Source of the DNA: a virus
Strand: one strand, 5' to 3'
Virus record (IMG/VR): IMGVR_UViG_3300036939_000082
Span: 62,001 to 126,000 of that record
Length of the DNA: 64,000 nt
This document shows positions 30,686 through 50,683 of this stretch, piece after piece (the first letter of the stretch is position 1; every line of letters begins with the position of its first letter). The position numbers and the translations under genes are program-made. The notes under the pieces were generated by a model. That model worked only from the letters and a program-made list of their open reading frames with translations, did no database searches and was not told the origin of the DNA.

Positions 30686-31333
30686 GTGAGAAAACTTTAC
30701 CTTACCCCCGACGAGGCTTCGACTCGATTAATAGCAGCTCGACTTTGCAGTCTTGAGTCTTTGCCGGATTTGCTAGAACTAGAAAGCTGGCTCACGATCG
30801 CCCAAGCAGAGATGGACAACTGGCTCCAGCAATGCTTGCTGCCAACGGAATACGAAGATTTTTTAGAACCCAACTATCAAGGGATACTGCATATTCCCCG
30901 ATCGCCCGTACTGGAAGTCAGGCGCATTACCGTTTCTTCACCGTCAGTATCGGTTGTGGGGGGGCGACAGATGATAGGACGATACGCTCCAACATCAGAG
31001 ATTGAAGTTTCAGCTATATGGGGCGGCGGGCAAAACATTGAAGTAGGCAGGTCTTGCTGTTCGCCTAGCAGTCAGCGGTATAAAGTGACTTATCTCGCCG
31101 GCTACGATCCTTTGCCCTCGATCGTCCCTCAAGTTATGTTCAACATACTGAGGCGGTTGATGGCTGGGATTGAACTGGGCGATCGAACCCGCCATTTAAT
31201 TAACGTTGGGTTGCAAGGCGGAATTTCGCAAACTTTTGCGGTTGGCAAGGAAGCTAAAAACCAGCGATCGTCAACCAACCTCGACGATTTAATGTCGCCG
31301 CTAGAGCGCTACCGGAAAAAACTATGGTTTTAG
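30686..31333 (+). CDS. Head-tail adaptor / connector protein (HK97 gp6-like)
   Basis: A 215-residue protein from a GTG at 30686. The start LTPDEASTRL and helical segment LLELESWLTIAQAEMDNWLQ, with a following IPRSPVLEVRRITV (beta hairpin) and a C-terminal helical region, match the all-helix adaptor plus insertion seen in gp6/gp15 connector proteins. It would bind below the portal. It overlaps the next gene by ten bases. Both head-tail genes are on the plus strand, away from the leftward capsid block. Confidence 0.7.
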   Translation: MRKLYLTPDEASTRLIAARLCSLESLPDLLELESWLTIAQAEMDNWLQQCLLPTEYEDFLEPNYQGILHIPRSPVLEVRRITVSSPSVSVVGGRQMIGRYAPTSEIEVSAIWGGGQNIEVGRSCCSPSSQRYKVTYLAGYDPLPSIVPQVMFNILRRLMAGIELGDRTRHLINVGLQGGISQTFAVGKEAKNQRSSTNLDDLMSPLERYRKKLWF

Positions 31334-31828: not shown

Positions 31829-32139
31829 TTAAAGTGAAAAATACGCCTGAACATTATTACGCAATCGCCGAAATAGTCAGATCGTTCACACCGTTAGCGC
31901 TTACAGCCGCTGGAGCAGGAGTAGCTATTTACGTTATTACTGCAACAAACTTGTCCTCCGAAAAGTTTGCAATCGCCATTGGCGTTGCAAGTTCAGCATT
32001 AACAGGTGCTTGCGGTACTTACAATCCCCAGTCAAAAGAAAGAAGACAAGAACAAACACGAGTAGGTCATATCGATCGAGTAGATATTGAGCAAACTGTT
32101 GAAGAGAATGAAAGTGAAAATAGGGGTGATCGGTTATAA
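31822..32139 (+). CDS. Holin-like two-span membrane protein
   Basis: A 105-residue protein with two hydrophobic segments (about residues 19-40: FTPLALTAAGAGVAIYVITA, and 47-66: KFAIAIGVASSALTGACGTY) joined by a short polar loop, and a charged, hydrophilic C-terminal tail. This matches class II holins. It overlaps the 31-residue membrane gene. The GH24 lysozyme would need such a pore. An assigned holin role is inference from topology and context. Confidence 0.55.
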   Translation: MVVKVKNTPEHYYAIAEIVRSFTPLALTAAGAGVAIYVITATNLSSEKFAIAIGVASSALTGACGTYNPQSKERRQEQTRVGHIDRVDIEQTVEENESENRGDRL

Positions 32140-32739
32140 GAAATCATGAAAATTATACAAATTAATTTCTAGTTTAATTGGAAAAAAATGATATAATTCA
32201 ATTTTTCCTTTTCTTTCAATTTTTAAAATATGCAAACTAGGAGCTTGAATGTCGTCCGTTATATAAACAGCTTTAGTTATTTCATTTGTGCCTAATATAG
32301 TAGTTAGGGAGTTTTTTGCAGATTCTAGCGTTAGGTTTGTTATTTTATTAATAAAACCAATCAAATGCGGAGTAATTACAAAAAAGATTTCATTTGTATT
32401 TTCTGAAGATTGAAACTTATTGCAAATCAAATAGTTGTAGCAACAACCTCTATTGGTATAATTATTTTGTACTGTCTCAGTACATATTCTTATGCAAATC
32501 TTTAATTGCACAAAACTAGAAAAAAGTGCGTTACAAAGTTCATTATCAATGTAAAAATAATCTTGTTCATTAAACCCTTCCAAAGCAATAACGCAATTAA
32601 AAGCTTGCTCATCAAACTTATGAAATTTCAATTCATTTTTGTCTCTTGTAACGTCATAAAAGTGTAGTTGGACTTTTTCTGCCATTTGTTCTGCGATTTC
32701 AGGTGATTCGGGTGATTTAAATTTTACTGTTTTTAGCAT
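32134..32739 (-). CDS. KFD-family protein, tandem copy
   Basis: A 201-residue protein, read from the ATG at 32739 (MLKTVKFKSPES), which matches the start of its three homologues; the extended frame from 32757 would run through a remnant of the adjacent gene. It shares with the copies at 32847, 36849 and 50150 a core: an N-terminal strand, a helix, N.LkF.KFD..AF.cv.ALEG.n (about residues 42-60). No named domain. The extended upstream DNA is a second copy of the ATPase 3' end, showing a tandem duplication. Confidence 0.7.
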   Translation of the reverse strand: MLKTVKFKSPESPEIAEQMAEKVQLHFYDVTRDKNELKFHKFDEQAFNCVIALEGFNEQDYFYIDNELCNALFSSFVQLKICIRICTETVQNNYTNRGCCYNYLICNKFQSSENTNEIFFVITPHLIGFINKITNLTLESAKNSLTTILGTNEITKAVYITDDIQAPSLHILKIERKGKIELYHFFPIKLEINLYNFHDFL

Positions 32740-32742
32740 TTT

Positions 32743-32822
32743 TGTCGTTCTCCCCAAATTATTGCTTCCTGTATTCGGTTCATCGTTTCAATTATAGCAT
32801 TAAAATTTACAACCTCAATCAA
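32743..32822 (-). pseudogene. Remnant of the AAA ATPase gene 3' end
   Basis: Read on the minus strand, this encodes IEVVNFNAIIETMNRIQEAI followed by IWGE, matching the last about 24 codons of the ATPase gene (IEVVNFDAVIEAMNRIQEAI, IWGE) with three replacements. It lies immediately before the second KFD gene, exactly as the real ATPase end precedes the first. A segment containing ATPase tail plus KFD gene was therefore duplicated or acquired as a diverged allele. Confidence 0.8.
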
Positions 32823-32846
32823 GATGTGATCGGTTGTAGGAAATTG

Positions 32847-33437
32847 TTAAAACTGTTCTCGTCCCCAATGAATTGTTAGATCGGTCGGAAAAAAACGATA
32901 TAATTTCGTTTCTCCGTTTCTTTCGATTTTTAGTATGCGATGCAACGTAGGTTCTTCAAAAGAAGAATCTCTTATACAAATAGCGCTTGTTACGGAATCT
33001 ATAATTGGGATAGGTTCTAAAATATTTTCTGCAATTCTTTTTATTAGAGTAGCAAAAAAAAGTAATTCAGGATTAATGACTAAAGGAATTTCATCCATCA
33101 TAGTTCTTGAAATTTGAAAAGTATTGCAAACTAAAAGTCTAAAGTGATGACAAGATGTTCGAGTAGTATTACATATTGCTAACTCTAAAATAATTCGAGG
33201 CTCTCTATGATGATAAACAGGTGCTATCCAACTTTCTTTGTTATCAACAAAAGAATAATCTCGCCAACTAAGATTTTCCAAAGCAATAACGCAATTAAAA
33301 GCTTGTTCATCAAACTTGTAAAATTTCAATTCATTTCTGTCTCTTGTAACATCATAAAAATATGATTGAATTTTTTTGGTCATTTCTTCCGCTAATTCAA
33401 GTGATTCAAGCGATTTAAATCTTACTATTTTTAGCAT
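32847..33437 (-). CDS. KFD-family protein, copy next to the ATPase
   Basis: A 196-residue protein from the ATG at 33437 (MLKIVRFKSLES); a longer frame to 33455 overlaps the ATPase stop. It follows the ATPase stop by five bases, so the two are translated from one message. It shares the KFDEQAFNCVIALE core with the neighbour (about 60 percent similar by eye) and more distantly with 36849 and 50150. The second half carries IPLVINPELLFFATLI and a Trp/Tyr-rich end. Function unknown. Confidence 0.7.
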   Translation of the reverse strand: MLKIVRFKSLESLELAEEMTKKIQSYFYDVTRDRNELKFYKFDEQAFNCVIALENLSWRDYSFVDNKESWIAPVYHHREPRIILELAICNTTRTSCHHFRLLVCNTFQISRTMMDEIPLVINPELLFFATLIKRIAENILEPIPIIDSVTSAICIRDSSFEEPTLHRILKIERNGETKLYRFFPTDLTIHWGREQF

Positions 33438-33442
33438 TTCTA

Positions 33443-34045
33443 TTATTCTCCCCAAATAATTGCTTCCTGTATTCGATTCATTGCTTCAATTACAGCATCA
33501 AAATTTACGACTTCAATTCCTGACTCAGTTACTTCATTGCATTCTAACTGAAACACGCTAACTTCTATTTGTTTAGTGTTGTAAGCTTTGACTCTATTTG
33601 GACAAATGAACTCCGAACAGTCGTAACCTTCTTTTTTTGCAAGTTTCATTAGATAAGCAGTAGTAACACTAAACATAATCAGCGTATTAAGTTCTTTTAC
33701 TATATAATCGCTGTTTGTTGCTACTACTACTTTTACTCCTAGATTTACAATTTTTGCAATAAGCCGAGCCATTCTTCGTTGGTTTTCTGGATGCAGTCCC
33801 AATTCAGGGGTATCTAATATAAGAATAAAATCAGTGCTACCAAAAGGTTCTTTGAATTGAAAAGCTAATTCAAAAAAGTCTTGCGCCCTTTTAGCCTCCA
33901 AGCATTTAGAACCTTTTACGGATGTACCGATCGCGCGAATTAGCGAAGATTTTCCAGTACCGTTCGACCCACAGACAACCGTAAGATCTCCTAACTCTAT
34001 TTCAATATCGCCAAAAGCAGGTAGAGTGGTAATTGAAATTTTCAT
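33443..34045 (-). CDS. Minimal AAA/ABC-type ATPase
   Basis: A 200-residue ATPase of the AAA_15/AAA_21 (OLD/RloC-related) type. Walker A is GSNGTGKSS (residues 26-34), Walker B is ILILDTPE with Asp78 and Glu81, followed by LGLHP. The usual H-loop (T-H-S) reads T-N-S at 110-112. It is far shorter than family members (about 300-600), lacking a visible insertion with the ABC signature and any nuclease domain. It is followed by KFD proteins and preceded by a small CxxC protein, so this looks like a compact multi-gene module, possibly anti-host defence or DNA metabolism. Confidence 0.75.
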   Translation of the reverse strand: MKISITTLPAFGDIEIELGDLTVVCGSNGTGKSSLIRAIGTSVKGSKCLEAKRAQDFFELAFQFKEPFGSTDFILILDTPELGLHPENQRRMARLIAKIVNLGVKVVVATNSDYIVKELNTLIMFSVTTAYLMKLAKKEGYDCSEFICPNRVKAYNTKQIEVSVFQLECNEVTESGIEVVNFDAVIEAMNRIQEAIIWGE

Positions 34046-34068
34046 AGAACAAATAGATTGTGAACGTT

Positions 34069-34245
34069 TCAGACAGATTGCTCTTGTTCCAACTTTACAA
34101 ACAAATGACCTTCAGTACAAACAGCAGGAATACCATTGCTAGGAATGATTGAAGCATTAATCCCCTCTTTTTGCCAATATATTGAATGGATAGTGCGGGC
34201 GATCGGGCGATCGCATTTAGGACATTTTTTGTTAAAACTTAACAT
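34069..34245 (-). CDS. Small CxxC protein
   Basis: A 58-residue frame from ATG 34245. The N-terminus has one CPKC pair (Cys8, Cys11), and a lone Cys43 is the only later Cys, so a complete four-Cys ribbon is not present. It lies 23 bases upstream of the ATPase gene on the same strand. A TACAAT -10-like box precedes it on the minus strand, with a leader resembling the other cassettes. It could be the first gene of the ATPase unit. Confidence 0.5.
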   Translation of the reverse strand: MLSFNKKCPKCDRPIARTIHSIYWQKEGINASIIPSNGIPAVCTEGHLFVKLEQEQSV

Positions 34246-34322: not shown

Positions 34323-34553
34323 ATGATCAATAGAAGACAAGCGGAAACACTTTGTTTTCATCGGGTAATTACGGTAAACGAAGCGCGAGAAAACATAGGC
34401 TTAGAACCTTTACCTAAAGGGGGCGATCGGACTGGAGTTTGGGACATCGGCGCTGGCGACAGAGATCGGGAAATAAATCCGTACTTGGCTCAAGCAGTAG
34501 ATTGCTTTTTTGATGCAAAAGGTGTTTGGATACCTCCGGGTGATCGCGCATAA
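34323..34553 (+). CDS. Portal-like C-terminal fragment
   Basis: A 76-residue protein: RVITVNEARENIGLEPLPKGGDR is the pattern found at the C-terminal end of phage portals (compare GIITKDESRRRVGEKPLSEEGGD in this window's portal; both given in part). No portal body precedes it. Terminator-like hairpins follow at 34618 and 34695. This is a fragment of a second portal or a short protein that kept the tail motif. Start codon supported by ATG and an A-rich leader. Confidence 0.5.
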   Translation: MINRRQAETLCFHRVITVNEARENIGLEPLPKGGDRTGVWDIGAGDRDREINPYLAQAVDCFFDAKGVWIPPGDRA

Positions 34554-34617
34554 GCAATTGCCAATTAGTGAAATCTATCTCACCGATCACCCCACCGCCG
34601 TGGCAGTCGCAGCAAAA

Positions 34618-34650
34618 AAGTTAGTCGTGGGACAGCGACTTTTTTATCTC
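34618..34650 (+). terminator. Terminator-like hairpin after the portal fragment
   Basis: AGTCG / CGACT stem with a short loop, followed by six T residues. A second hairpin, AGGAAGC / GCTTCCT, lies at 34695-34724. Both support beginning the next gene at 34756. Confidence 0.6.
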
Positions 34651-34755
34651 CGAGGGTACTACAAAGCCAAATTGTGGACTATACTCAAAAAAATAGGAAG
34701 CAGACTTTGGCGGTCAGGCTTCCTAAATGAGTTCATAAAATTTTCAATTACCACC

Positions 34756-36312
34756 ATGATACCACCGTTATTGCAAAATGTCCGCGAAACCGAAAAACTT
34801 TCTTTCTTCTCCCCTGAAATAGCTGCAATTATTGGCGTAGAGGCTGCAACGGTATTCTCTAAAATTCAGTGGTGCGTCGAGAATCCAGAAATGAAGGGTA
34901 TGATCGCCCCCGATGGTGCAAAGTATATCCGGAACCCGGTCGTGTGTACCAGCCAGCGCAAGTTAGAGAAAAGTCGGGAACACGGAAAGCTTGTAGACTG
35001 GCTTTCCAATTTTACTTGGGCAAGTTTTGCCAAACTTCGCAGAATTTTTACCACTCTTGAAGATATCGGACTCATCATTGCCAAGAAGATTCGGGCTCAG
35101 TTTTGGGATCAGTGCAAGTATTATACGGTAAACTACCAAAAGCTGGCTGAACTACTGAAACGCCCGCCGCTACCCATTTGTTCAAATCAAACACATCGAT
35201 CTGCGGAAACCGATCACCTCGATTTGTCGAATGGTAACAAATCATATCAAAATACCTTTTCAAAAAAAGTCTTTCAAGATCCACACCCTCAAGAAGCGCG
35301 CAAACCGAAGTCAACAGTAAAAAAGAAAGTGAGGGGGGCTTTAATTGAAAATCCGATCGCCCAACAAGATCCGCCAACAGCACAGCCGATCGCCGAAAAG
35401 ATTTTTCACGCGCCTGAATATAAATCAGAGTCTACCGTCACAACTGAAGTTCAAGGATTGGACGAAAGTTCCGCAAGGTTCAGTTCGGTTAATCAAACTC
35501 AACAAAAAGATTTTTTCTACAAGTTGCTGGTATATGCCCAGGAGTGCGTCAACATCAATTGTCCCGAGGGATACACCAAAGCTACAATCCGCGAACTCAA
35601 ATCCGGCGATCCAGACCCGATCGCCCAATTGTTGTGGGAAGAGTACCTTGCGGGCGAAGAACTCGGTAGCCGCGTTGTTCCGTTTGGATACAGATTGCGA
35701 GGCGTACCGGAGCGGATTGTCGGGGAGGCGATCGCCCAAGACCAGCGAGGGAAAGTAGGCGCTACTGGCACGGAAGCTGTTGTAAATGCTGCGAGAAGTT
35801 TGGCTAAAGCTCCCGTAGTCCGCGCCGTTGCCGACGCTGCCCGCTTGCAGTTAATCCGCGCTAGCGAAGAAGCTGCGAAGCAAGAGGCGCTGGGGATACC
35901 TCCCGAACGGGCGATTGCCAACTGTTTGCCAACTTATGCTACGGCGATTGTACCAATCAGTTCGTTGGTCGCACCAGAACCGGAAAAATTGATCCAGGGG
36001 GCGATCGGAGAAGAGAAAGAAAAAACTGAAGAACTTATACTAACAGAGGAACTGACAGAGCTGGAACAGGTAGATAATCAAGCGAAAAAGGTTGCTTTTG
36101 CCCAGATCAAGGAAATCTTGAGCAAGTGCAAAACCGCAGTATCCCCAAGACAGCGCATTCGAGAAGCTAACTTGCGGGAAGCGGCGTCGTTACTTTCAAT
36201 GGAGAAAACTTCTGAAAAGACGGTAGAAACAGAAAATTTGGGTGATCGGGGCGATGGCTTGGGCGAGTATTTGCTTCAACTTGAAGCTAGAAACGAGGAA
36301 GATATTTGGTGA
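34756..36312 (+). CDS. Replication-protein-like / winged-helix protein
   Basis: A 518-residue protein started at ATG 34756; the longer frame from 34510 would run through two hairpins and is rejected. Residues 1-130 contain KLSFFSPEIAAIIGVEAATVFSKIQW, FTWASFAKLRRIFTTLEDIGLIIAKK (quoted in pieces), typical of an N-terminal winged-helix domain in phage replication or primosome-loading proteins. The middle is Pro/Lys-rich, and the C-terminal half is helical with Ala-rich stretches. It may load a helicase or bind origins, but the family is not firmly established. Confidence 0.55.
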   Translation: MIPPLLQNVRETEKLSFFSPEIAAIIGVEAATVFSKIQWCVENPEMKGMIAPDGAKYIRNPVVCTSQRKLEKSREHGKLVDWLSNFTWASFAKLRRIFTTLEDIGLIIAKKIRAQFWDQCKYYTVNYQKLAELLKRPPLPICSNQTHRSAETDHLDLSNGNKSYQNTFSKKVFQDPHPQEARKPKSTVKKKVRGALIENPIAQQDPPTAQPIAEKIFHAPEYKSESTVTTEVQGLDESSARFSSVNQTQQKDFFYKLLVYAQECVNINCPEGYTKATIRELKSGDPDPIAQLLWEEYLAGEELGSRVVPFGYRLRGVPERIVGEAIAQDQRGKVGATGTEAVVNAARSLAKAPVVRAVADAARLQLIRASEEAAKQEALGIPPERAIANCLPTYATAIVPISSLVAPEPEKLIQGAIGEEKEKTEELILTEELTELEQVDNQAKKVAFAQIKEILSKCKTAVSPRQRIREANLREAASLLSMEKTSEKTVETENLGDRGDGLGEYLLQLEARNEEDIW

Positions 36313-36502: not shown

Positions 36503-36823
36503 ATGCTGCTCAAAATTCAACTTCCGCAACAAGAGAAAAAACATATAAATTTGCCAAATGGACTTACTTTTGTCTGTGAAGTAATAGGTTCCTCAACCGA
36601 AAATTTACAACAAACAGCATGGATTATCAATCCAGAAAGCTTAGCACTTAGTTCTTCTTATTCTCTTGAAAAGAGTTCATTGGTAAAATTTCTATCATTG
36701 ATACTTGTAAGAAAAGAGGATGTTTTTAAATTAATAGTTTATTCAAAAACAAACTGGGATGATAACTGCGACACCCTTGATGTCATTTCGGTGGAAGAAG
36801 TTTTTGGTTTTCCAGCTATTTAG
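36503..36823 (+). CDS. KIQLP-family protein, copy 1
   Basis: A 106-residue protein. It is homologous to the genes at 37406 and the pseudogene at 37963: L.KIQLP.Q.K at the start, a central N.t/eF.. strand, then LSLILV.KedvFkL.V and a final LDVsSVeEVFgFP. It has a -10 TATAAT (36471-36476) and an AAC-rich leader. The three copies, in order, each have their own leader. No named domain; perhaps a small beta-rich protein. Confidence 0.6.
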   Translation: MLLKIQLPQQEKKHINLPNGLTFVCEVIGSSTENLQQTAWIINPESLALSSSYSLEKSSLVKFLSLILVRKEDVFKLIVYSKTNWDDNCDTLDVISVEEVFGFPAI

Positions 36824-36848
36824 CTATAGACGAGAAGATCGATTGAAT

Positions 36849-37238
36849 ATGTTAGTTAAAAATGTTGAAAAAGTAATTGAATTTGATTCATTGGATGTTG
36901 CAAAAAAAGTTGTGTCTCACCTACATCACGTCGAAATTGATATCACTGCCGATCGCGCGCTGTTGAAATTCATCAAATTTGATGGCGCAGCTTTTGATTT
37001 AGCGCGAGCGTTAGAAGGAGTGGGACTAACAGGATGGAAGATTTTAAATACAGTTAAATTTTCTCAACCTATAGCTCGCTGCTTTCCTATTTTTGAAATT
37101 AGTCTCGATCCGAATACAATTCAAGAACTTACAAATTGTTTTTCTCGAATAGAGAAAGCCATACTAGCTGTTTCATTTCAGATGTACAAATCTCAACGTT
37201 TAACAGAACTTGTTTCTAGGGAAGACGAACTAAACTAG
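36849..37238 (+). CDS. KFD-family protein, short copy
   Basis: A 129-residue protein from the ATG at 36849; the longer frame from 36759 overlaps the previous gene. It shares the family core (FDSLDVAKKVVSHLHHV, LLKFIKFDGAAFDLARALEGV, quoted in pieces) with 32134, 32847 and 50150. It is shorter, missing the C-terminal third of those proteins, so it may be truncated. It lies 25 bases after a KIQLP gene, without a separate promoter visible. Confidence 0.6.
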   Translation: MLVKNVEKVIEFDSLDVAKKVVSHLHHVEIDITADRALLKFIKFDGAAFDLARALEGVGLTGWKILNTVKFSQPIARCFPIFEISLDPNTIQELTNCFSRIEKAILAVSFQMYKSQRLTELVSREDELN

Positions 37239-37405: not shown

Positions 37406-37780
37406 ATGTTAGTCAAAATTCAACTTCCGCCACAAAAGAAAGAAGAAATAGAATTGTTAAATGAATTTTCTTTTACGTCTGAAGTGATTAGTTTTAATGA
37501 GGGTTTAATATATACCGGATGGAGTGTTAATCCTAAAGGTTTTTTAGAGCTTTCCAGTTCCAATGAATTACCAAATTTTATATCACTAATGCTTGTAAAA
37601 AAAAACAGAGAAAATGTTTTTAAGTTAAAGGTTAGATGGGAATTGTACGGTATTTGCAGTCAAGTTACTCTTGATGTCAGCTCTGTTAAAGAAGTTTTTG
37701 ATTTTCCTCAAATTCAACCCATATGCAACGTGAACAAACGAAGACCGTGGTTTAGCAGACTATTTGTTTCAAATAGATAA
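37406..37780 (+). CDS. KIQLP-family protein, copy 2
   Basis: A 124-residue paralogue of the 36503 gene, with the same start (MLVKIQLPPQKKEEIEL), FSFTSEVI strand and C-terminal LDVSSVKEVFDFPQIQP. A TAAACT-like -10 precedes the A-rich leader. The extra C-terminal 15 residues are basic (NKRRPWFSR). No recognised domain. Confidence 0.6.
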   Translation: MLVKIQLPPQKKEEIELLNEFSFTSEVISFNEGLIYTGWSVNPKGFLELSSSNELPNFISLMLVKKNRENVFKLKVRWELYGICSQVTLDVSSVKEVFDFPQIQPICNVNKRRPWFSRLFVSNR

Positions 37781-37962: not shown

Positions 37963-38285
37963 ATATCAATAAAAGTACAGATTTTACCGCAAAAAAAACA
38001 AGGAATAGAATTACTGAATGAATTTTCTTTTACGTCTAAAGTGTTGTTTTTAACAGAAAATTTTGTACGAACAGAATGGAATCTTGAAACAAAAGGATTA
38101 GGCTTCGATAATGCTAATAAATTTTTACAATTTTCGTCATTGATTCTTGTAAAAAAGAAGATACTTTTAGGCTAAAAGTTGAATTTGGAATAGACATAGA
38201 TGGCGTTTGTATCTGTACAACTTTTGATGTTGAATCGGCTGAAAAAGTTGCTAATTTTCCATCAATTCACCGTAGGCATAAAAAA
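37963..38285 (+). pseudogene. KIQLP-family pseudogene, copy 3
   Basis: Aligned with its paralogues, the start codon is ATA instead of ATG (37963), and a run of A residues near 38150-38160 carries a frameshift. Before the shift it reads KVQILPQKKQGIELLNEFSF; after it, in a different frame, FRLKVEFGIDIDGVCICTTF and DVESAEKVANFPSIH. A -10 CATAAT precedes the leader. Loss of both start and frame supports a decayed member. Confidence 0.75.
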
Positions 38286-38290
38286 CAAAA

Positions 38291-38827
38291 ATGGCTAACA
38301 CTATAAGTATTTGGATCGAGATTGATGGATGTGAGTCTGAGGTTGAATCTGTTTTTCAACGAATGAAAAGTGACCACAATATGTTTGACTTTAAGTCTTT
38401 AATTCCATTACCTGTTAACACACGTTGTGATAGGAATTGGTGTTACAACAATTGGGGATCAGGCAGTAATTCTATGTATTTTGAGCGGTTAACTTCAAAT
38501 ACAGTTTATTTTGAGACAGCAAATTCATATCCCGGTTTCATAATTAAGGCTTTGGCTTTAGCCTATCCCAAGTTACGATTAAAAGTTGAATGGATTGAGG
38601 AAAGCCTAGAAAGTGCGGGTCGCTGGATACTGTGTGGTGAAAACTATTCTTATCTAGAAGAAGAAAGTTACTTCTGTTGGAAGCAAAAAACTTCAAATTG
38701 TCTCATTCATTTGTTGAATGTGAAATATCAACTTGACCGTTATACAGAATGGTTAAAAGACTCTGATTCGGACGCCGAGTTTGCTGATTGTTGCAGTTAT
38801 TATCTCAACTTGCTTGAATTAAAGTAA
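38291..38827 (+). CDS. YubB/DUF1281-like ferredoxin-fold protein
   Basis: A 178-residue protein. The N-terminal SIWIEIDGCESEVESVFQRM and the central RNWCYNNWGSGSNS resemble YubB-type (DUF1281/Api92-like) proteins of plasmids and phages, which share a WxxxNWG(T/S)xx(D/N) motif and a ferredoxin-like fold. These usually have unknown roles. It starts right after the KIQLP pseudogene, and no terminator is evident between them. Confidence 0.55.
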   Translation: MANTISIWIEIDGCESEVESVFQRMKSDHNMFDFKSLIPLPVNTRCDRNWCYNNWGSGSNSMYFERLTSNTVYFETANSYPGFIIKALALAYPKLRLKVEWIEESLESAGRWILCGENYSYLEEESYFCWKQKTSNCLIHLLNVKYQLDRYTEWLKDSDSDAEFADCCSYYLNLLELK

Positions 38828-38874: not shown

Positions 38875-39735
38875 CTACAACAAAAAATCGCTAGTAAACA
38901 AGTCAAAGTTATTGAGTCCTATAAATTTAAACTCTTCAAACTTGTCCCGCGAGTTAAAAACGTTGTGCAATTTGATGACGTTAGACGATCGCTCGATTAC
39001 CGACAAACATTCTAACGGTACGCTGTTTACCACAAATTGATTGTTTGTAGTTAGGATGAATTGAACTGGCGATCGATTGCTATATTCTACTAAATACTTA
39101 GTGATAAGAGGTGAAGATTCATAGTCTAGCTTGCATCCAAAGTCATCGACAACAACAGTTTTAGGTGTATCTGTTGGAGGTTCGCGAAGAATTAAGCCTT
39201 TGTTCGGACTTGTCCCAAAATCGTAAAATTTTAGTGAGTCAGCCCAAAGATATAATAATCTTAAAAACGGATATTGAGCATAGCGATACTGGATATAATT
39301 TTCAGGTTGCGCTATTACGGTTTTTGTTTTGTGGGCTTGAAATTTAACGTCTTCTTGTAAATTTTCCGCATAAACGGTACTTTCGCCTGACTGGTTCCTA
39401 TCTAGTAATACTAGCAAAATATACCTGCTTGCATCGCTGCATACAATCAACTGTTCTTTGCTTACAAAACCTTCTTGTATTTTAAGCAAGTATTCTATGC
39501 GGTAGCCTGGTTTGCCAGTATCGAACAATAGACGCCATTCGTGATTTTCTGTTTCAACAATTTCGACTCCCCTAAGTAGTTCTGTTAACCTACCTATTGC
39601 TTTTAAAAGCCTAGATTTGCCACTGGCATTTTTACCTACAATTAAATTAAGTTGACCAAATTGACATTTCTCGATTCGCCATTCATTCGTTAAACCTTGG
39701 TTGGCGATATACTCAAAGGTGATTAAGTTCTTCAT
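38875..39735 (-). CDS. AAA/ABC-type ATPase
   Basis: A 286-residue ATPase started at ATG 39735. An upstream extension to 39765 is encoded by a neighbouring repeat and is rejected. Walker A GKNASGKS is at residues 34-41, Walker B TVVVDD at 193-198 has Asp-Asp in place of the usual Asp-Glu, and TTNNQ at 229-233 replaces the H-loop His with Asn. A C-terminal effector domain is missing. It is related in type to AAA_15/OLD ATPases. Its second acidic residue and H-loop suggest altered hydrolysis. Its 5' end is next to the TnpB element. Confidence 0.75.
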   Translation of the reverse strand: MKNLITFEYIANQGLTNEWRIEKCQFGQLNLIVGKNASGKSRLLKAIGRLTELLRGVEIVETENHEWRLLFDTGKPGYRIEYLLKIQEGFVSKEQLIVCSDASRYILLVLLDRNQSGESTVYAENLQEDVKFQAHKTKTVIAQPENYIQYRYAQYPFLRLLYLWADSLKFYDFGTSPNKGLILREPPTDTPKTVVVDDFGCKLDYESSPLITKYLVEYSNRSPVQFILTTNNQFVVNSVPLECLSVIERSSNVIKLHNVFNSRDKFEEFKFIGLNNFDLFTSDFLL

Positions 39736-39781
39736 TCGGCAAGCCCTGATTGGCGATATACTCAAAGGTGATTAAGTTCTT
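39701..39781. repeat. Two diverged copies of the ATPase 5' end
   Basis: A 32-base word (39701-39732) that encodes codons 2-11 of the ATPase is repeated exactly at 39750-39781. Similarity continues into the next codons with silent changes (Asn-Gln-Gly-Leu written with different codons), so the distal copy is an allele-like remnant, not a fresh duplication. The distal copy abuts the right end of the TnpB element. Confidence 0.8.
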
Positions 39782-39784
39782 GAC

Positions 39785-39860
39785 CATCCACCCCGACCTA
39801 AAGGTGCGGGGATTCCCAATTATCACTAATTGGATTTCTGCTTCGTAGCACCAGCCTTTC
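39785..39860 (-). ncRNA. Putative omega RNA of the TnpB element
   Basis: TnpB nucleases use an RNA made from the gene's 3' end and right end. Here it would end with the CCCCG..CGGGG hairpin and the terminal GGTCAAG; the guide would be the flanking DNA, which begins AACTTAATCACCTTTGAG (39763-39780, minus strand), the 5' end of the ATPase gene remnant. The RNA boundaries are by analogy. Confidence 0.5.
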
Positions 39861-41001
39861 GAGACTTACACTCTTCGGGTCTTACGGTCGCTCCACAGAC
39901 TGAAACGGCTAGCCCAGCCGCCAAAATATTTTTTGCCGCATTAATGTCGCGGTCATGCTTCGTTCCACAATCAGGACATTTCCATTCCCGGATACTTAAG
40001 GGCATTTTTTCAACAATGTGACCGCAGTTTCCACAACGCTTAGAACTGGGAAACCAGCGGTCTATTTTTATCAAGTCGCGTCCGTACCAGTCACACTTGT
40101 AACTTAGCTGGCGAATTAATTCACCCCAGCTAGCGTCACTGATAGCAAAGGCTAACTTGTGGTTCTTTACCATGTTCTTGATGGCTAAATCTTCAACTAC
40201 AATCGTTTGGTTTTCACGAATGAGTTGAGTCGTTAGCTTGTGAAGAAAATCTTTGCGGACATCGACTATCTGCGCGTAGACTTTGGCGACTCGTTTCCGA
40301 GCCTTTTCCCGATTATTGCTGCCCTTCTGCTTCCTTGCTAAATCTTTTTGCTTTCTCTTCAGCTTTTTCCGAAGCTTTTTAAAAGTTCTTGGATTAGCGA
40401 TTTTGTCGCCGTCGCTAGTAGCAATCAGACTGGTGATTCCCATATCCAGTCCGATTGTTTTCTTTATTTTAGGAAACGGTTGAATTGTATAATCGTCTAC
40501 CAATATAGAGACAAACCAAAGACCCGCAGGCGTCAATTTTACCGTAATAGTAGACGGGATGCACCCTTGAGGAATTTGTTTGCTCCAGCGAATTGGGAGC
40601 GGTTCACTGCATTTAGCTAAAAAAACCTGTCCGTTCTTCCAACGGAAGGCAGACTTGGTAAATTCAGCGCTACCACCGTTATGCTTTTTTTTGAAATTAG
40701 GATACTTGGCTCGCCCTGCAAAAAAGTTGGCGAACGCTGCCTGAAGATGGCGAAGTCCCTGTTGGAGGGGAACGCAGCTAACTTCATTCAGAAAATCGAG
40801 TTCTTCTTCTTTCTTCCAGTGCGTTAGCATTGAAGAAGTTTCACCGTAACCCACTCTTTCTTGGCGCTCGTACCAAGATTCTGTTCGGTAAACCAAAGCC
40901 TTGTTGTACACCAACCGAGTACATCCTATTGTCCGTCGCAAGAGGTTTTCTTGCTCGATAGTTGGGTAAAATCGGTAGCGATAGGCTTTTTCCATCTTCA
41001 C
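39826..41001 (-). CDS. tnpB: TnpB RNA-guided nuclease (IS605 OrfB)
   Basis: A 391-residue protein with complete RuvC motifs: GLDMG (Asp186), VVED (Glu270) and HDRDIN (Asp352), plus a zinc ribbon with CGNC (Cys323, Cys326) and CPDC (Cys342, Cys345). The N-terminal YRFYPT and LVYNKAL are typical. It cuts DNA next to a TAM, guided by an RNA from its right end, and helps keep the element in place. All catalytic residues are present, so it is likely active. An alternative start is at 40995 (MEKAYRYR). Confidence 0.9.
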   Translation of the reverse strand: MKMEKAYRYRFYPTIEQENLLRRTIGCTRLVYNKALVYRTESWYERQERVGYGETSSMLTHWKKEEELDFLNEVSCVPLQQGLRHLQAAFANFFAGRAKYPNFKKKHNGGSAEFTKSAFRWKNGQVFLAKCSEPLPIRWSKQIPQGCIPSTITVKLTPAGLWFVSILVDDYTIQPFPKIKKTIGLDMGITSLIATSDGDKIANPRTFKKLRKKLKRKQKDLARKQKGSNNREKARKRVAKVYAQIVDVRKDFLHKLTTQLIRENQTIVVEDLAIKNMVKNHKLAFAISDASWGELIRQLSYKCDWYGRDLIKIDRWFPSSKRCGNCGHIVEKMPLSIREWKCPDCGTKHDRDINAAKNILAAGLAVSVCGATVRPEECKSRKAGATKQKSN

Positions 41002-49230: not shown

Positions 49231-50043
49231 ATGAATCCCAAAACAATGACCAAAAACCATATAGTCTCTTTCTCAAGTGGCAAGGCTTCTTGGCTTGCTG
49301 CCAAGATAGTTGCTGAAAAATTTGGCACCAACAATCTGTGGTTAGTATTTGCCGATACGACAATTGAAGACGAGGATAATTACAGATTCCTTGAAGAAGC
49401 AGCCACGAACGTCGGCGGTCAGTTAATCCGTCTTAAGGACGGTCGAAATCCCTGGGACATTTTTAATGAAAAGCGGTTCATTAACCATCAGCAATCTAAT
49501 TGCTCGATCGAGCTTAAGGTCAAACCTTGCGAAGCGTGGATCAACGCCAATTTTTTACCAGAAGACACGGTTTTATACTTTGGAATTGGTTTTGAGGAGT
49601 TGCATCGAATGAAGGTGATCGCCAAAAACTGGCATCCATTCCAAGTAGAAACTCCACTCTGCTGGGGAGATCGCTGGGCAGACCAACAAGAAATTAATCG
49701 CCAGCTACGACTAAACAATCTCAAACAGCCGAGACTTTATGACATGGGTTTTGCCCATGCTAATTGTGGTGGCTTTTGTACAAAAGCAGGTTTAAAACAC
49801 TACCGCAACCTCTTGAAACATTTACCAGAGGTTTACGCGCACCACGAACAAAAAGAGCAAGAGTTTTTAAAACTGATCGACAATGATTCAATCGGTCTTT
49901 TGCGACGCACAAAAAACGGAATTACCAAGGGTCTTACCCTTAAAGCGTTTAGGGAGGAAATAGAAGCAGCACCCGTCCAACTTTCTTTTGACTTTGAAGA
50001 ACTTGGTGGGTGTGGTTGCTTTATTGACACCCCTAAGTCATAG
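49231..50043 (+). CDS. PP-loop ATPase of the PAPS-reductase-like family
   Basis: A 270-residue protein. The N-terminus has IVSFSSGKASWLAAKIV, where SSGKAS takes the place of the SGGKDS PP-loop; a motif Asp is changed to Ala. LVFADTTIEDEDNYRFLEE and HANCGGFCTKAG (Cys-rich) are also typical of phage PAPS-reductase-like proteins and of DndC-like enzymes. They activate a substrate with ATP, for sulfur or nucleotide modification. Ala in place of Asp may lower or change activity. Ends with a Cys-rich tail (GGCGC). The substrate is unknown. Confidence 0.7.
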   Translation: MNPKTMTKNHIVSFSSGKASWLAAKIVAEKFGTNNLWLVFADTTIEDEDNYRFLEEAATNVGGQLIRLKDGRNPWDIFNEKRFINHQQSNCSIELKVKPCEAWINANFLPEDTVLYFGIGFEELHRMKVIAKNWHPFQVETPLCWGDRWADQQEINRQLRLNNLKQPRLYDMGFAHANCGGFCTKAGLKHYRNLLKHLPEVYAHHEQKEQEFLKLIDNDSIGLLRRTKNGITKGLTLKAFREEIEAAPVQLSFDFEELGGCGCFIDTPKS

Positions 50044-50149: not shown

Positions 50150-50683
50150 ATGAGAAAAGTCGTTATACTGCGATCCGCAGAAGATGCTAAAAAAATAGCA
50201 TCACACCTTTACAATGTCGATCGCGCCAACAATCATCTGATATTCTCTGACTTCGATCCGAGTGCTTTTAAATGTGTTGTTGCATTAGAAGGTTTAAATG
50301 AAAAATCGTATGAATATTTTGTTGGAACCATTTTACTAGAGGTAAAACTTTCTAATAAGTTATACTCGCTGAAACTTCCTGTCAAACGTAGAGTTAGCGG
50401 TAACGTAGATTCTTCGGGTTATGACGATTTTACGTTATTTTTAACCCCTGAAGTGTTGTCTATGGCTGAAATAGTGCAAAATTTTCCAAATTGTTTTCGT
50501 TGGCAAATAGGTGCTTCAGTTCTCGATGTTGATCATACGCCATTTATAGATATTGACTACGTGGCATTTTTAATAAGGTGGAATGATGATATCTGCAATT
50601 ATCATTTATTTATTAGCGACAAAAAGAAATCTGGACTTTTTTCACTTTTTGGCGTACAACAATTTACTTTTGAAGATGTTTGA
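50150..50683 (+). CDS. KFD-family protein, single copy
   Basis: A 177-residue protein homologous to 32134, 32847 and 36849: VVILRSAEDAKKIASHLYNV, NNHLIFSDFDPSAFKCVVALEGLNEKSYEYF (quoted in pieces). The C-terminus has a distinctive CNYHLFISDKKKSGLFSLFGV. It has its own -10 (TATAAT at 50123-50128) and a leader with no Shine-Dalgarno sequence. It shows that the family exists apart from the ATPase. Function unknown. Confidence 0.65.
   Translation: MRKVVILRSAEDAKKIASHLYNVDRANNHLIFSDFDPSAFKCVVALEGLNEKSYEYFVGTILLEVKLSNKLYSLKLPVKRRVSGNVDSSGYDDFTLFLTPEVLSMAEIVQNFPNCFRWQIGASVLDVDHTPFIDIDYVAFLIRWNDDICNYHLFISDKKKSGLFSLFGVQQFTFEDV

What the first reader, a model, noticed from the sequence alone, without database searches (positions are those of the whole stretch)
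32134..34245. Compact CxxC protein / minimal AAA ATPase / KFD module, a candidate undescribed system
A 58-residue CxxC protein, a 200-residue ATPase with intact Walker A and D-T-P-E but no effector domain, and one or two KFD proteins are consecutive on the minus strand with short gaps. Two-gene ATPase-plus-unknown units are common among defence and anti-defence systems (for example PARIS or Gabija-like ATPases, which are larger). Here the KFD proteins could be effectors or substrate receptors. The Asn in place of the H-loop His also occurs in the 38875 ATPase.
Basis: inference. Interest (0 to 1): 0.7.

Follow-up and report, generated by a model that had tools for sequence, protein, structure and literature searches.

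The report
Crippled defence-type ATPase in a cyanophage
The supposed minimal ATPase module in this cyanobacterial virus is most likely the broken remnant of a known two-gene anti-phage defence system (the WonAB / PD-T4-4 type), lying next to an unrelated, virus-specific family of small proteins, and not a working new system.

Summary
The ORFs are real and at the stated coordinates. The 200-aa "minimal ATPase" is an internally deleted relative of the 460-aa ATPase of PDC-M47 / PD-T4-4 / WonAB defence systems (PADLOC E about 1e-50). It keeps Walker A and the C-terminal part. About 268 residues are gone, including the ABC signature. The catalytic Glu is Thr and the H-loop His is Asn, while 92 of 93 relatives keep each. 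None of about 90 relatives examined has this deletion. Those relatives are followed by a PD-(D/E)xK nuclease. Here that slot holds KFD1, which has no nuclease motif and no detectable similarity to the nuclease family. KFD is a four-copy family known only from this 189-kb myovirus and one sister virus. Only KFD1 abuts the ATPase. KFD2 is preceded by a 26-codon scrap of an ATPase 3' end, the trace of a tandem duplication. KFD3, KFD4 and all three sister KFDs have no ATPase neighbour, and the sister has no such ATPase and no CxxC gene. A dead, frame-open ATPase retained as a dominant-negative decoy against host WonAB-type systems is not excluded.

The parts
33443..34045 (-). 200-aa internally deleted, catalytic-site-altered relative of the 460-aa PDC-M47A / PD-T4-4_A / WonA ATPase
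   Evidence: PADLOC PD-T4-4_A E 1.1e-50, PDC-M47A E 2e-50, matching only the two ends of the models; aligns to residues 1-34 and 303-460 of the Annamia plasmid homologue
33947..33970 (-). Walker A, GSNGTGKS (residues 26-33), intact
   Evidence: sequence; family alignment
33884..33946 (-). deletion junction: about 268 residues of the family, including the central inserts, are missing here; the family signature SSS aligns to EAK at the end of this stretch
   Evidence: residues 34-72 match the family consensus at 18% against a median of 77% in relatives
33803..33826 (-). Walker B ILILDTPE: catalytic Glu replaced by Thr79
   Evidence: Glu in 92 of 93 relatives; the E300A variant of WonA gives no protection (PMC12137116)
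33704..33715 (-). H-loop TNSD: His replaced by Asn111
   Evidence: His in 92 of 93 relatives, Asn in one (L046); the H333A variant of WonA gives no protection (PMC12137116)
32847..33437 (-). KFD1, 196 aa, starts 5 bases after the ATPase stop, in the slot that the nuclease holds in relatives
   Evidence: no significant family hit; AlphaFold2 residues 1-65 confident, beta-alpha-beta-beta-alpha-beta
32748..32825 (-). 26-codon scrap of a second ATPase 3' end (..IEVVNFNAIIETMNRIQEAIIWGE), upstream of KFD2; includes a GGGGAG ribosome-binding-like sequence and a promoter-like match (promoter-like matches in the region are no more frequent than chance)
   Evidence: 69% identical to Annamia ATPase residues 435-460, E 2e-5; 82% nt identity to the ATPase 3' end; promoter scan
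32134..32739 (-). KFD2, 201 aa, 48% identical to KFD1; its counterpart in the sister virus is frameshifted
34069..34245 (-). 58-aa CxxC..C..H protein, probable small zinc-ribbon-like phage ORF
   Evidence: weak phrog_5559 hit E 0.0015; absent from the sister virus and from annotated phages by tblastn
36843..37238 (+). KFD3, no ATPase neighbour (ORF as listed 36759-37238)
50150..50683 (+). KFD4, 177 aa, follows a PAPS-reductase-like gene, no ATPase neighbour; 70% identical in the sister, dN/dS 0.23

Best explanation
The block is a relic plus bystanders. An ancestor of this cyanobacterial myovirus acquired a PDC-M47A / WonA-type defence ATPase gene (460 aa). It lost, or never received, the nuclease gene. 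The ATPase 3' end came to lie directly upstream of a resident viral gene, KFD. A tandem duplication of [ATPase 3' end + KFD] made KFD2 and left the 26-codon scrap. The remaining ATPase lost about 268 internal codons plus the catalytic Glu and His; it should at most bind ATP and should not hydrolyse it. KFD proteins are fast-evolving accessory proteins of this virus lineage with a predicted ferredoxin-like N-terminal domain, and they act independently of the ATPase. CxxC is a separate small phage ORF. Shown: homology, deletion, residue losses, absence of the nuclease, duplication scrap, KFD copies without ATPase, absence of ATPase and CxxC in the sister. Inferred: the order of events, loss of ATP hydrolysis, and KFD acting alone in host takeover or another accessory role.
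For: PADLOC hits restricted to the two ends of the 460-aa models. Catalytic Glu and His each conserved in 92 of 93 relatives but lost here, and signature SSS replaced by EAK. The window protein differs at 7 of 33 columns that are at least 90% conserved (median of relatives 1), and its terminal branch ranks 91st of 93. No relative has the deletion; the short ones inspected are frameshifted longer genes. 44 of 386 cyanobacterial genomes hold a match to this ATPase family, mostly full length. Relatives' partners carry PD-(D/E)xK residues (D 81/82, E or D 78/82, K 77/82, Q 77/82), whereas KFD has none and hhalign gives probability 0.1 on its 0-100 scale. The nuclease family is absent from both viral records. 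KFD without ATPase. Scrap. KFD coding constraint: dN/dS 0.23-0.58 for KFD1, KFD2 and KFD4 comparisons.
Against: The 200-codon frame is still open, although 4.4% of random substitutions would make a stop, so neutral decay would have to be recent or the protein is retained. The AlphaFold2 model is confident (pLDDT 82, pTM 0.81), although it is guided by intact relatives. The ATPase end and KFD1 are tightly spaced like an operon. Codon-position differences in the scrap lean towards past coding constraint but are not significant (p = 0.11-0.21).
Confidence: 0.7

Rival explanations
1. Dominant-negative decoy. The virus keeps a hydrolysis-dead WonA fragment, with Walker A lobe and C-terminal extension, so that it pairs with host WonA-type ATPases or occupies the nuclease partner and blocks the host defence system.
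For: Frame open, confident compact model. Retains the C-terminal part; the last 30 residues match the family consensus at 0.60 (median 0.73), within the normal range, unlike the core. In WonAB the dimerised C-terminal extensions are the predicted nuclease-binding surface, and inactivating WonA ATPase activity leads to loss of WonB (PMC12137116). Matches to this ATPase family are common in cyanobacteria: 44 of 386 genomes.
Against: Found in one virus only; the sister lacks it. Residues 126-170 of the extension are poorly conserved (0.22, only 1 of 32 relatives lower). The signature-bearing segment and inserts that help form the dimer are gone. No functional data.
Confidence: 0.14
2. Partner swap. 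KFD replaced the nuclease as the ATPase's partner, and a full-length ATPase-KFD operon worked in the recent past (defence or exclusion of rival phages); the present locus is its decayed form.
For: KFD1 begins 5 bases after the ATPase stop with a ribosome-binding-like sequence inside the ATPase end. The duplicated unit joins ATPase end and KFD, so the adjacency predates the duplication, whose dS (about 0.6-0.7) is similar to that of the split from the sister (KFD2 against sister 0.81).
Against: Other KFD copies stand alone. None of the ATPase loci fetched has KFD. The scrap's codon-position pattern is not significant.
Confidence: 0.1
3. One reading: an intact minimal ATPase with a KFD effector and the CxxC protein forms an undescribed working defence or anti-defence system.
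For: Gene order and short gaps; open frames.
Against: Loss of signature, catalytic Glu, H-loop His and 268 residues; KFD mostly without ATPase; CxxC and ATPase absent from the sister.
Confidence: 0.04

Closest known systems
WonAB of Vibrio cholerae WASA-1 (PMC12137116) and PADLOC PDC-M47 A/B
   Same: The ATPase shares Walker A, the Walker B context (D-x-P-E-L-x-L-H-P-x-N-Q), the T-x-S-D loop and a C-terminal extension, with about 41-50% identity to cyanobacterial homologues over the aligned parts.
   Different: About 268 residues missing, E to T, H to N, no signature; the nuclease gene is replaced by KFD; 200 aa against 460 aa.
PD-T4-4 (Vassallo et al. 2022, PMC9519451)
   Same: Best single PADLOC hit, PD-T4-4_A E 1.1e-50.
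   Different: KFD matches no PD-T4-4_B or PDC-M47B model and PDC-M47B is absent from the viral record; catalytic residues lost.
PARIS (AriA/AriB), Gabija, Septu PtuA, OLD
   Same: General AAA_15 / AAA_21 ABC-type core.
   Different: Much weaker scores (AriA 1.6e-16, GajA 5.5e-10, PtuA 1.9e-10, Old 6.8e-11); no Toprim, HNH or DUF4435 partner found by family search.
Ferredoxin-like / RRM / Cas2-VapD fold proteins (for the KFD N-terminal domain)
   Same: Predicted beta-alpha-beta-beta-alpha-beta order in residues 1-65.
   Different: Foldseek best E 0.05, no significant match; no conserved acidic residue after strand 1 as in Cas2/VapD; no sequence family.

Membership tests
WonAB / PDC-M47 / PD-T4-4 | ATPase of the WonA / PD-T4-4_A family by sequence | tested here: met
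   PADLOC E 1e-50, but only over the two ends of the model
WonAB / PDC-M47 / PD-T4-4 | Walker A | tested here: met
   GSNGTGKS; K present as in 92 of 93 relatives
WonAB / PDC-M47 / PD-T4-4 | ABC signature (SSS-type) and central inserts, about 460 aa | tested here: not met
   EAK in place of SSS; about 268 residues absent
WonAB / PDC-M47 / PD-T4-4 | Walker B catalytic Glu and H-loop His | tested here: not met
   Thr79 and Asn111; conserved in 92 of 93 relatives each
WonAB / PDC-M47 / PD-T4-4 | adjacent PD-(D/E)xK nuclease | tested here: not met
   KFD has no motif, hhalign probability 0.1 on a 0-100 scale, no PADLOC hit; PDC-M47B absent from both viral records
WonAB / PDC-M47 / PD-T4-4 | anti-phage activity | not testable with these tools
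   needs a plaque assay
PARIS | AriA plus AriB (DUF4435 / Toprim) pair | tested here: not met
   KFD gives no Pfam, NCBIfam or PADLOC hit to AriB
   1 of 4 KFD genes in this virus abuts an ATPase gene, 1 has a 26-codon scrap, 0 of 3 in the sister; no KFD beside the fetched relatives

The most novel reading that the evidence does not exclude
A phage-encoded, internally deleted and hydrolysis-dead derivative of a WonA / PDC-M47A defence ATPase serves as a dominant-negative anti-defence protein, co-transcribed with a virus-specific ferredoxin-like protein (KFD) that helps it engage the host system.
Probability: 0.1. Interest if true: 0.75.

Novelty: new variant of a known kind. Interest (0 to 1): 0.3.

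Why it matters
If the relic reading is right, it is a worked example of how defence genes picked up by a phage decay, and a caution: a 200-aa "minimal ATPase" that looks tidy from sequence alone can be a 460-aa enzyme with its centre removed. If the protein is instead retained as a dead subunit, it would be a new way for a phage to poison WonAB/PD-T4-4-type defence. That would be directly testable, because matches to the host ATPase family occur in about 11% of the cyanobacterial genomes sampled (44 of 386). The KFD family is an undescribed, fast-evolving four-member gene family of this virus lineage.

Tried and rejected
KFD as the PD-(D/E)xK nuclease partner: rejected, because no motif is present and profile comparison gives no similarity. 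My first motif search was too narrow (33 of 93 partners); the alignment-based count replaces it.

KFD elsewhere: tblastn on plasmids and phages, genome contigs and 386 cyanobacterial genomes by profile gave nothing; only the sister virus has it. The profile rests on seven sequences of two viruses, so distant relatives could be missed.

Search for other minimal ATPases: short hits L022, L060 and L106 proved to be longer genes broken by frameshifts; L007 and L041 are other length variants that keep the central signature region; L075 runs off its contig. Fragmentary hits in a few cyanobacterial genomes were not followed up.

KFD fold: AlphaFold2 is confident only for residues 1-65; Foldseek found no significant match. 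KFD as a VapD/Cas2-like nuclease was dropped because the acidic residue after strand 1 is not conserved among KFDs.

Selection on the ATPase scrap: dN/dS 0.20 over 26 codons suggested past constraint, but codon-position tests are not significant.

Single-sequence viral scans with the ATPase and KFD1 found nothing. Scans with two conserved neighbours found only the one sister, so population-level tests were impossible.

Full report
What is there. The four minus-strand ORFs exist at the stated coordinates. The window lies in a 188,942-base IMG/VR virus record. It is cyanobacterial by its HIP1 sites (GCGATCGC 33 times against 1 expected) and a contractile-tailed phage by its tail-sheath and baseplate-hub matches. 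The block sits between a head-tail-adaptor-like gene (30686-31333) and a DnaD-like replication gene (34510-36312).

The ATPase. PADLOC places the 200-aa protein with PD-T4-4_A (E 1.1e-50) and PDC-M47A (E 2e-50), but the match covers only the two ends of these 460-aa models. Against the closest full-length plasmid homologue, on a plasmid of the cyanobacterium Annamia dubia (461 aa), it covers residues 1-34 and 303-460: about 268 residues are missing. I fetched about 100 relatives from genomes and viruses. Nearly all are 400-500 aa; the short ones inspected are longer genes broken by frameshifts. In the alignment of 93 relatives the catalytic Glu is present in 92 and the H-loop His in 92. The window protein has Thr and Asn, and EAK in place of the SSS signature. 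It departs at 7 of 33 columns conserved in at least 90% of relatives (median of relatives: 1), and its terminal branch is the third longest of 93. In WonA the matching mutations E300A and H333A each abolish protection (PMC12137116). By inference the protein may bind ATP but should not turn it over.

The partner slot. In the relatives the ATPase gene is followed, usually with a short gap or overlap, by a gene of roughly 135-230 codons. Its alignment shows PD-(D/E)xK residues (D 81/82, E or D 78/82, K 77/82, Q 77/82); the partners tested are PDC-M47B and PD-T4-4_B by PADLOC. In the window this slot holds KFD1, starting 5 bases after the ATPase stop. KFD1 has no such motif, no library hit and no profile similarity to the nuclease. 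PDC-M47B is absent from the whole record.

KFD. The virus has four KFD genes: 32847-33437, 32134-32739, 36843-37238 and 50150-50683. The shared part is the first 60 or so residues (LKF.KFD..AF....ALE). AlphaFold2 models residues 1-65 of KFD1 confidently as beta-alpha-beta-beta-alpha-beta, a ferredoxin-like order; the rest is unreliable, and Foldseek gives no significant match. KFD was found nowhere outside this virus and its sister. dN/dS of 0.23 (KFD4 against its sister), 0.34 (KFD2 against its sister) and 0.58 (KFD1 against KFD2) shows that these are protein-coding genes evolving fast; the short KFD3 comparison gives 0.84.

The duplication scrap. Between KFD1 and KFD2 lie 26 codons (32748-32825) that match the end of the ATPase (69% identity to the Annamia protein; 82% nt identity to the window ATPase end). 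The bases after KFD1 (ACAACCGATCAC) match those after KFD2 (ATAACCGATCAC). The simplest reading is a tandem duplication of [ATPase end + KFD + a few bases]. Whether the second ATPase copy was ever longer cannot be told: codon-position tests on 26 codons are not significant.

The sister virus. IMGVR_UViG_3300035684_000001 (188,553 bases) is collinear over the stretches compared, at about 75-88% nt identity per aligned stretch. At this locus it has one KFD gene (KFD2-like, frameshifted by one base in a T run) and, instead of CxxC, ATPase, KFD1 and the scrap, a 270-base stretch with a different small ORF. It has no relative of the ATPase or of the CxxC protein anywhere in the record. Of seven KFD genes in the two viruses, one abuts an ATPase gene.

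How it most likely works. As a module, it most likely does not. The evidence favours a decayed, captured defence ATPase beside independent viral genes (confidence 0.7). What keeps the question open is that the 200-codon frame is intact although 4.4% of random substitutions would create a stop, and that the protein is modelled as a compact fold (pLDDT 82, pTM 0.81; the model leans on intact relatives). It retains the C-terminal part, which in WonAB is predicted to form the nuclease-binding surface. Its last 30 residues are normally conserved, but residues 126-170 are not. A dominant-negative role against host PDC-M47 systems, whose ATPase family is matched in 44 of 386 cyanobacterial genomes, is therefore possible but unsupported by function or by a second genome.

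Limits. Only two genomes of this lineage are available, both metagenomic; the junction could not be checked against reads. The profile searches for KFD rest on seven sequences. Absence from records that may be fragments is not proof of absence.

Noticed in passing
39826-41001 (+/- strand: minus): A TnpB-like (IS200/IS605-type, zinc-ribbon) gene lies between the 38875 ATPase and the baseplate-hub-like gene. The sister virus lacks it, with its two flanks meeting within a few bases (L012 about 1570-1578), so it looks like a recent insertion.
   Followed up: partly
38875-39765: A second, unrelated AbiLi-like ATPase (PADLOC E 5e-10) with a TNN string at the H-loop position, conserved in the sister (77% aa, dN/dS 0.29): a better-maintained ATPase gene than the one in the finding.
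   Followed up: partly
36503-36823, 37406-37780, about 37972-38288; sister L012:2493-2810: A second small virus-specific repeated family (MLVKIQLP-type, 105-124 aa) interleaved with KFD3; with KFD it suggests a hypervariable accessory region with paralogue expansion.
   Followed up: no
L012:6001-6608: The KFD2 counterpart in the sister virus is split by a one-base deletion in a T run: either a young pseudogene or a sequencing or assembly error.
   Followed up: partly
38291-38827: Protein with an Api92-like ferredoxin-like domain (DUF1281_C, E 4e-5, just above the Pfam cut-off).
   Followed up: no
49231-50043: PAPS-reductase-like gene (phrog_424, E 2e-48) directly upstream of KFD4.
   Followed up: no
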